Origin: Alphaproteobacteria bacterium
GTDB taxonomy: Bacteria > Pseudomonadota > Alphaproteobacteria > Caulobacterales > Hyphomonadaceae
Direction: 5' to 3'
Assembly (NCBI GenBank): GCA_018830285.1
Contig: JAHJSB010000024.1
Location: 46,461-110,460 of the forward strand
Length of the DNA: 64,000 nucleotides
The translations under genes were made by a program, and so were the position numbers. The notes below the pieces were generated by a model. It saw only the letters and a list, made by a program, of their open reading frames with translations. It did no database searches and had not been told where the DNA came from. Positions 61,862 to 64,000 of the stretch are shown one piece after another (positions within the stretch are counted from its first letter, which is position 1; each line of letters begins with the position of its first letter).

Positions 61862-62296
61862 ATGGCTGCGGCGGACAATAAGACAAAACCCGCGATTGTT
61901 TCGCCGCATGCCTTTATCTCCGCACTGCATGACGGTCGCCGCAAGCGGGAGGCCGAACGCCTGCTGCCCTGGTTCGAGACCGTCACCGGCCTGAAGGGGC
62001 GTATGTGGGGGCCGTCCATGATCGGTTTTGGCCGGTATCACTACAAATACGATAGCGGGCGTGAGGGCGACTTCATGATGACCGGCTTTGCCCCGCGCAA
62101 GGCGGCGATGACGCTCTACATCATGCCGGGCTACCGCGACATGAGCGAGACGCTCGCCCGGCTCGGTCCGCACAGGACCGGCAAGAGCTGTCTCTACATC
62201 AACCGCCTGGAGTCCGTGGACATGGACGTGCTGGCGGAGATCGTGACGGACGGCGTGGCCTACATGCGCGCGAATTACGAGACATGGGATGCCTGA
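61862..62296 (+). CDS. DUF1801 domain protein (copy 2)
   Basis: MWGPSMIGFGRYHYKYDSGREGDFMMTGFAPRKAAMTLYIM...GPHRTGKSCLYIN, paralogous to copy 1. Confidence 0.82.
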   Translation: MAAADNKTKPAIVSPHAFISALHDGRRKREAERLLPWFETVTGLKGRMWGPSMIGFGRYHYKYDSGREGDFMMTGFAPRKAAMTLYIMPGYRDMSETLARLGPHRTGKSCLYINRLESVDMDVLAEIVTDGVAYMRANYETWDA

Positions 62297-62852
62297 GGCG
62301 GTCGCGACATTCACGCACCGCCTGGCCACGGCGGCGGACATCCCGGCAATTGTCGTGCTGATGCGGGCGTCGATTGCCGAGAACATGAAGGCCTTCCTGT
62401 CAGCCGACGAGATTGTCGCGGCGCAAGAGACGATGGGGCTCGACCAGTCGTTGATCCGTGACGGCACCTATTTCGTGATCGAGACCTTACCGGTCGGCGA
62501 GACCGTAATGGTGGCGTGCGGCGGCTGGGGCAAGCGGCGGACGCTGTATGGCGGTGACCAGACGGCGGGGCGTGATGACTCGCTGGCCGATCCGACCGTC
62601 CATGCCGCCCGCATCAGGGCGATGTACACGCATCCGGACTGGACGCGCCGGGGCATTGGCTCATTGCTGCTGGACCTGGGAGAGGCGGCGGCGCGGGACG
62701 CGGGCTTTCGCACGATCGAACTGGGCTCGACGATTGCGGGCGAGGCGCTGTACCTGGCGCGCGGCTATGCGCCGTTCCATCGCGACGAACAGGTGGCGGC
62801 GAACGGGCAGGTGAAGACCGTGATCCACATGCGCAAGGCGCTTGTCTTATGA
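62289..62852 (+). CDS. GNAT family N-acetyltransferase
   Basis: RIRAMYTHPDWTRRGIGSLLLDLGEAAARDAGFRTIELGSTIAGEALYLARGYAPF. Confidence 0.9.
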   Translation: MPEAVATFTHRLATAADIPAIVVLMRASIAENMKAFLSADEIVAAQETMGLDQSLIRDGTYFVIETLPVGETVMVACGGWGKRRTLYGGDQTAGRDDSLADPTVHAARIRAMYTHPDWTRRGIGSLLLDLGEAAARDAGFRTIELGSTIAGEALYLARGYAPFHRDEQVAANGQVKTVIHMRKALVL

Positions 62853-62881
62853 CTTTTCGTGCCGATTGGGAGATATTGGCA

Positions 62882-63043
62882 CCGCCGCCGGGAGTAACCG
62901 CTCCCGGACGGCGGCGAGGGACGGATCGTCACGACGCAGGAGGTTCTACGCTCCGAACTAGAGTTTGATCGCCCTCGTCTTTCACATCGGCCTGAACGGA
63001 TACAGGGGCTTTGAGGCCCGCATGACAAGCAGAGGCAGGAAAG
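62882..63043 (+). ncRNA. Candidate IS110 bridge RNA (bRNA)
   Basis: 5' hairpin CCGCCG-CCGGGAG-TAACCG-CTCCCGG-(A)-CGGCGG; then CGAGGG...CCCTCG stem enclosing a loop with an inner GGAG/CTCC hairpin; then CAT-C-GGCCT/AGGCC-G-ATG stem with a 20-nt loop containing ACGGATAC. Folded by eye. Confidence 0.5.
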
Positions 63044-63982
63044 ATGACAGACCTTACCATCGGCATTGACGTTTCGAAAGACACGCTCGACGTTCATATT
63101 CATCCAGCGGGTGAGCACCGCCAGTTCCCCAATACACCAACAGGCTTCAGGACCATCGTGAGATGGATCGCGGACCGGCCCGTCGCCCGCCTCGTCTTCG
63201 AGGCGACGGGCCCTTATCACCGCGCCTTCGAACGCGCGATGGGCGAGGCAGGCCTACCACTGTGCAAGGTCAATCCGCGCCAGGCCAAGCGCTTCGGCGA
63301 GGCACTTGGCCAACTGGCGAAGACTGACCGCATGGACGCAGGGATGCTCGCCCGCTTCGGGGCCTTGCTCGAACCGGACGTGCGCCCGGCGCCCTCGAAG
63401 ATCATCAGTGATCTCAAGGACCTGCATGTGGCCCGCACGGCCCTCATCAAGGACCGCACCGCAGCCAAGAACCGGGAAAAATCGCTGCAAAGCCTGTTGC
63501 TGAAACGCCAGTCACGCGAACGCCTCGCCCAGATCGCGCGTCATCTGGAGGCCATCGAAGACAGGATGCTGACCATTATTGAAAGCGACCAGGACCTTGC
63601 CAGAAGGCTTGCCATCCTGGCGTCTATCCCCGGCGTCGCCACACGTTCAGCCTTTACCCTGATCGCCGACATGCCAGAGCTCGGAACTCTCGACAGTCAG
63701 GCCACGGCCGCCCTCTCAGGAGCTGCACCCATGACCCGCCAGTCCGGCAAGCGGACGGGCAAGGCCTTCGTCACCGGAGGCAGGGTGAATGTCCGTCAGG
63801 CCCTGTACATGCCAGCTCTGGTCGCTGCCCGGTTCAATCCGGACTTCGCTGCCATGTACCAGGCCATGACGGCACGCGGTAAACCGCCCAAAGTCGCCCT
63901 CACCGCCATCATGCGAAAACTTATCATCCTCGCGAATGCCCTCATAAAAGCTGACCGGAAATGGGAACCAAGAGTGGCTTGA
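63044..63982 (+). CDS. IS110-family transposase (DEDD/RuvC-like N-terminus, Transposase_20 C-terminus)
   Basis: IGIDVSKDTLDVHIHP; FEATGPYHRAFE; LAKTDRMDAGMLARF; LASIPGVATRSAFTLIADMPELG...ALSGAAPMTRQSGKRTGKAFVTGGR. Confidence 0.95.
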   Translation: MTDLTIGIDVSKDTLDVHIHPAGEHRQFPNTPTGFRTIVRWIADRPVARLVFEATGPYHRAFERAMGEAGLPLCKVNPRQAKRFGEALGQLAKTDRMDAGMLARFGALLEPDVRPAPSKIISDLKDLHVARTALIKDRTAAKNREKSLQSLLLKRQSRERLAQIARHLEAIEDRMLTIIESDQDLARRLAILASIPGVATRSAFTLIADMPELGTLDSQATAALSGAAPMTRQSGKRTGKAFVTGGRVNVRQALYMPALVAARFNPDFAAMYQAMTARGKPPKVALTAIMRKLIILANALIKADRKWEPRVA

Positions 63983-64000
63983 CCAAGACGGATACTCTAG

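What the first reader, a model, noticed from the sequence alone, without database searches (positions are those of the whole stretch)
63988..64000. Putative bRNA guides match the IS right end and the flanking DNA at the window edge
Seen in sequence: ACGGATAC in the second loop (62996-63003) is identical to ACGGATAC at 63988-63995, just after the transposase stop. GAACTAGAG in the 3' arm of the first loop (62955-62963) is the reverse complement of CTCTAGTTC, and the window ends ...ACGGATA-CTCTAG (63995-64000), so all 6 available bases match. These are the strands expected if the left donor guide is sense-identical to the right end and the right target guide is antisense to core plus right flank. 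The two matches abut at a CT dinucleotide, the core used by IS621. Caveat: the match was found by looking for it. A left target guide was not found, and only a weak right-donor candidate was seen (GGCAGGAAAG 63034-63043 against CTTTTCGTGCC 62853-62863).
Basis: partly seen in the sequence, partly recalled or inferred. Interest (0 to 1): 0.8.

Follow-up and report, generated by a model that had tools for sequence, protein, structure and literature searches.

The report
IS110 jumping gene with bridge RNA
The window ends just past one copy of a small jumping gene that carries its own guide RNA (a "bridge RNA"), and comparing copies shows the guide really does spell out where each copy inserted; this is a new, well-documented example of a mechanism described in 2024, not a new mechanism.

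Summary
ACGGATAC occurs at 62996-63003 and 63988-63995, and GAACTAGAG (62955-62963) is antisense to the CTCTAG that ends the window. The window stops at a contig end. Two other contigs of the same genome share its last 141 bases and continue CTCTAG|TTGCG (C31) and CTCTAG|GGGCAG (C46). Synteny in 12 relatives makes C31 the likely neighbour, so the next bases are TTG (predicted: TTC). Unoccupied acetyltransferase genes in two relatives read ...CGCT|CTAG, so CTCTAG is target DNA. Relatives fix the element at CT-62843..63994-CT. Both target guides track their own insertion sites (0 of 20,000 shuffles as good), including a matched one-base change between two genomes. The RNA forms covarying stem-loops. 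The transposase matches IS621/ISCro4 and keeps the DEDD and serine motifs. It is a new member of a known kind. RNA expression and activity are untested.

The parts
62289..62852 (+). GNAT acetyltransferase gene hit at its stop codon; native end is at 62842 (Leu codon CTC split); now reads Leu-Val-Leu-stop into the element
   Evidence: Pfam GNAT; empty sites in G004 and G030 read CGCT|CTAG
62841..62842 (+). left CT core
   Evidence: homology between copies starts here; GNAT homology of empty relatives ends here
62843..63994 (+). IS110-group element body
   Evidence: boundaries from copies with different flanks
62882..62914 (+). bridge RNA 5' stem-loop
   Evidence: fold, covariation
62915..62977 (+). 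bridge RNA target-binding stem-loop
   Evidence: fold, covariation
62929..62937 (+). left target guide TCACGACGC (sense to left flank plus C of the core)
   Evidence: covaries with left flanks across copies; 5 of 7 in this copy
62939..62954 (+). small hairpin between the two target guides
   Evidence: covariation, helix 5
62955..62963 (+). right target guide GAACTAGAG (antisense to CT plus right flank)
   Evidence: covaries with right flanks; matches CTCTAGTT of the C18-C31 junction
62991..63035 (+). bridge RNA donor-binding stem-loop, inner hairpin 63006-63019
   Evidence: covariation, helices 6 and 7
62996..63003 (+). left donor guide ACGGATAC
   Evidence: identical to right end 63988-63995
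63024..63029 (+). right donor guide GACAAG, antisense to 62841-62846 CTTGTC
   Evidence: both invariant in 18 aligned copies
63044..63982 (+). IS110 family RNA-guided transposase, 312 aa
   Evidence: NF033542, PF01548, PF02371; IS621 and ISCro4 chains
63983..63994 (+). right non-coding end
   Evidence: conserved in copies
63995..63996 (+). right CT core
63997..64000 (+). right target flank CTAG (host DNA); continues TTGCG on C31

Best explanation
Window 62841-63996 is a complete IS110-group insertion sequence with CT cores at both ends. Its left non-coding end encodes a bridge RNA with a 5' stem-loop, a target-binding loop and a donor-binding loop. The transposase is inferred to excise the element as a circle joined at ACGGATA-CT-TGTC. 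The donor loop would pair with that junction (ACGGATAC with the right-end side, GACAAG with the left-end side) and the target loop with the host site (TCACGACGC with the left flank, GAACTAGAG with CT plus the right flank). Recombination at CT would then insert it. Shown here: boundaries, variable target flanks, RNA structure by covariation, target guides tracking target DNA, and the empty site. Inferred from IS621: RNA expression, circle formation, serine/RuvC catalysis and strand exchange. This copy sits in the stop codon of a GNAT gene and supplies a replacement stop two codons later.
For: Transposase family; match over residues 6-303 to IS621 and ISCro4, the solved relatives; motifs GIDVS, FEATGPY, KTDRMDA and QSGK present. 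Fixed ends and variable flanks. Target guides match their own flanks better than in any of 20,000 shuffles, also with one copy per guide. In contigs of G014 fetched after the guides had been defined, left flanks CGACTTCG-CT fit guide TGACTTCGC and right flanks CT-CAGCA fit CTCAGCAAC (reverse complement of the guide), while G007 has CTCAGGAAC with flank CT-CAGGA. RNA structure: 96.6% of cells paired, covariation score 0.443 vs 0.181 shuffled (0 of 500), slid versions at most 0.127. Empty sites ...CGCT|CTAG in relatives. The published IS621 architecture is the same (PMC11208160).
Against: The left target guide fits this copy at only 5 of 7 positions. Some copies do not fit their guides (L005, L038, L048, L056; L032 and L055 on the left side). 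Donor guides are invariant, so covariation cannot test them in this clade. No Rfam family matched and no sigma-70-like promoter was found. No expression data. The second copy in this genome (right flank on C46) has no left end in the assembly.
Confidence: 0.95

Rival explanations
1. The matches are chance: an ordinary IS110 element whose 5' leader is a regulatory or untranslated structure, with short coincidental complementarities found by looking.
Against: Guide positions fixed by alignment fit own flanks better than all 20,000 shuffles for both guides; matched one-base change between G007 and G014.
Confidence: 0.02
2. CTCTAG is part of the element's right end, not target DNA, so the right guide pairs with the element itself.
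For: CTAG follows the right end in several copies, including both in this genome.
Against: Other copies carry GGTC, CCAG, CAGG, CAGC, TTAG, CAAA after ACGGATACT; element-free relatives have CT|CTAG at the same place.
Confidence: 0.01
3. A real bridge RNA, but this copy is a relic: the weak left guide means it inserted by a relaxed or older guide and no longer moves to this site.
For: Left guide 5 of 7 here; relative G004's empty site (CAAGACGCT) fits better by eye; [quoted passage not shown]
Against: Transposase gene is intact with all motifs; at least two insertions in this genome share CTCTAG and identical right-end sequence; two mismatches are within the published range.
Confidence: 0.15

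Closest known systems
IS621 (IS110 group) bridge RNA system
   Same: RNA in the left end, 5' stem-loop plus target and donor loops, four guides, CT core, left guides sense and right guides antisense, DEDD and serine motifs; transposase match E 2.8e-34 (PMC11208160, PMC11208158)
   Different: Diverged sequence; different guides and targets; in several family copies the right target guide matches six or more flank bases; activity unproven
ISCro4
   Same: Best match among solved structures (PDB 9t56, E 8.2e-35)
   Different: Its bridge RNA was not compared here; different host
seekRNA of ISEc21 (IS110) and of IS1111-group elements
   Same: Same transposase family, RNA from the non-coding region selects the target (PMC11187229)
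   Different: IS1111 members carry it downstream of the gene; the seekRNA forms studied are shorter

Membership tests
IS110 family | DEDD (RuvC-like) transposase with PF01548 and PF02371 | tested here: met
IS110 family | Residues equivalent to IS621 D11, E60, D102, D105 and S241 | tested here: met
   Motifs GIDVS (7), FEATGPY (52), KTDRMDA (93), QSGK (233); alignment to ISCro4; IS621 residues from PMC11208158. Equivalence by motif, not by structure.
IS110 group (not IS1111) | Long left non-coding end holding the RNA, short right end | tested here: met
   left end 62841-63043, right end 63983-63996; criterion
[quoted passage not shown]
Bridge RNA | Left target guide sense-identical to the left target | tested here: met
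   family test; weak (5 of 7) in this copy
Bridge RNA | Right target guide antisense to core plus right target | tested here: met
Bridge RNA | Donor guides match the element's own ends, core included | tested here: met
   ACGGATAC and GACAAG/CTTGTC present and invariant; no covariation test possible
Bridge RNA | Expressed RNA that binds the recombinase and is required for recombination | not testable with these tools
   needs RNA sequencing, pull-down and a recombination assay
IS110 family | Circular double-stranded intermediate joined right end-core-left end | not testable with these tools
   needs junction PCR or reads

The most novel reading that the evidence does not exclude
Target loops are exchanged as modules between diverged IS110 elements in these bacteria, so that elements are re-aimed by recombination of the loop. 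One degenerate copy (L005 in G015) has a body like the window's element but a target loop like that of a differently aimed element in another species (37 of 38 against 22 of 38 bases).
Probability: 0.25. Interest if true: 0.5.

Novelty: new member of a known kind. Interest (0 to 1): 0.35.

Why it matters
It adds an alphaproteobacterial clade of bridge-RNA elements with about 30 insertions whose guides and sites can be compared, including an empty site and a matched guide/site change, so it is a natural test set for how bridge RNAs are re-aimed. It also shows that bases beyond a contig end can be predicted from a guide (8 of 9 right). The mechanism itself was published in 2024.

Tried and rejected
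(1) Stop-codon targeting: sites CT-CTAG and CT-CTAA look like leucine-stop codons and the left end supplies an in-frame stop, but in most copies that frame is not a long open frame; rejected as a general rule. (3) Plasmid records: no near match. (4) Rfam: no relevant family. (5) Consensus promoter or terminator in the left end: none. (6) C46 as right neighbour of the window: not supported; only C31 is syntenic with the acetyltransferase gene. (8) A degenerate search of this genome for a further unoccupied site found one hit that was not followed. No structure prediction was run because solved relatives exist.

Full report
What was checked. ACGGATAC occurs four times in the window, 0.83 expected. 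CTCTAG is common (5 found, 8.8 expected), so the key match could not be judged from the window alone.

Where the window ends. The window ends at the end of contig C18. Two other contigs of the same genome, C31 and C46, share its last 141 bases and continue beyond. In window orientation they read ACGGATACTCTAG|TTGCGTCTC (C31) and ACGGATACTCTAG|GGGCAGACT (C46). The acetyltransferase gene left of the element and a metal-hydrolase gene carried on C31 (PF10118) lie on the same contig, in the same order and orientation, 1.2 to 13 kb apart, in 12 of the 14 genus genomes with a long match to the acetyltransferase gene; in the other two the match lies 29 bases and 2.3 kb from the contig's start, towards which the hydrolase gene would lie. 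The C46 flank has one good relative, on a contig without that gene.

Element boundaries. Copies in the same genus and in other Alphaproteobacteria start matching at CTTGTCTTATG (62841) and stop at ACGGATACT (63996). Flanks differ. The element is 62843-63994 between CT cores. Relatives of the acetyltransferase gene without the element read ATGCGCAAGACGCT|CTAG (G004) and ATGCGCAAGGCGCT|CTAG (G030), the native gene end in which TAG is the stop. CTCTAG at the window edge is therefore host target DNA, and the element supplied a new stop after Val-Leu.

Protein. The 312-aa product matches NF033542 (IS110 family RNA-guided transposase, 198.9 bits against a cut-off of 140), PF01548 and PF02371, and, over residues 6-303, the solved ISCro4 and IS621 recombinases. 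The DEDD and serine motifs are present (IS621 residues from PMC11208158).

RNA. An alignment of 18 left ends supports a 5' stem-loop, a target-loop stem with a small hairpin inside, and a donor-loop stem with a hairpin inside. 96.6% of cells form standard pairs, 18 of 31 pairs have a change on both sides, the covariation score is 0.443 against 0.181 in shuffles (0 of 500), and slid versions reach 0.127 at most. The structure was taken partly from RNAalifold on the same alignment and partly, for the donor-loop stem, from the single-sequence fold and by eye, so the slid control leans in its favour.

Guides. Positions were fixed by alignment: the right target guide is the nine bases before the inner stem of the target loop; the left target guide is the nine bases after GGATCG, with two more in one subgroup that has a longer arm (an exception made after seeing the sequences). 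Across unique guide/flank pairs the left guide matches its own left flank at 4.79 of 7 positions against 2.97 in shuffles (n=24), and the right guide at 4.23 of 6 against 3.10 (n=22); none of 20,000 shuffles reached these values, also with one copy per guide (n=14 and 11). For the window copy the right flank used was that of C31. Related copies are not independent, so these counts are not exact probabilities. Pieces of G014 fetched after the guides had been defined agreed: guide TGACTTCGC with left flank CGACTTCG-CT; right guide CTCAGCAAC (as reverse complement) with CT-CAGCATG; the sister element in G007 has CTCAGGAAC with CT-CAGGATG. For the window copy the right guide matches CTCTAGTT and misses at the ninth base, and the left guide fits 5 of 7. 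Donor guides ACGGATAC and GACAAG are invariant with the element ends; they fit the model but cannot covary here.

Comparison with what is known. The layout is the one published for IS621: RNA in the left end, left guides pairing with bottom strands, right guides with top strands, the CT core included in each pairing (PMC11208160); RNA-selected targets were also reported as seekRNA (PMC11187229). REP repeats are known IS110 targets (PMC11208160); the CTTCGACTTCG-CT-CAGG site in G007 looks like such a repeat (my reading, not tested). All sequence-level membership features tested were met. Expression, circle formation and activity were not testable. I file it as a new member of a known kind.

What remains open. 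The second copy in this genome has a right flank (C46) but no left end in the assembly. Several copies do not match their guides (L005, L038, L048, L056 among them); L005 is a broken mosaic whose target loop looks swapped. The organism is in the same genus as genomes that appear to be Hyphomonas sp. BRH_c22 and Hyphomonadaceae bacterium BRH_c29, because loci with identical sequence carry those names; this was not tested further.

Noticed in passing
L005 (G015:C32:24635-25790; same sequence as L034, Hyphomonas sp. BRH_c22): Degenerate IS110 copy: body like the window's element, target loop like the differently aimed element of G014 (37/38 vs 22/38 bases), an extra insert of about 37 bases between target and donor loops, and a damaged transposase gene; its flanks do not match its guide.
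   Followed up: partly
C46:31606-31746 and C31:51662-51802 (L002, L003): Two right flanks but only one left end of the element in the assembly; the left side of the second copy is missing or collapsed.
   Followed up: partly
L032 (Pelagibacterium montanilacus): The element is 91% identical in DNA in a differently named genus, which suggests horizontal transfer (not tested on a tree).
   Followed up: no
L007, L017, L188, L189; L049, L054, L056, L067: Sister elements appear to aim at repeated intergenic sequences (CTTCGACTTCG-CT-CAGG; CCCACTTT..ATG-CT-CTAR).
   Followed up: partly
L038, right end: The right end is followed by TGTCTTGCC, so the junction ACGGATACTTGTCTTG resembles the expected circle junction of the element; the rest of the flank is unrelated.
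   Followed up: no
L010/L020 (G019) and G046 copies (L175, L176, L178): A sister subgroup with the same right end ACGGATACT but flanks TCCCACTG, followed in some copies by ACAAGCAGAGGG, which resembles the bridge RNA's own donor-loop 3' arm.
   Followed up: no
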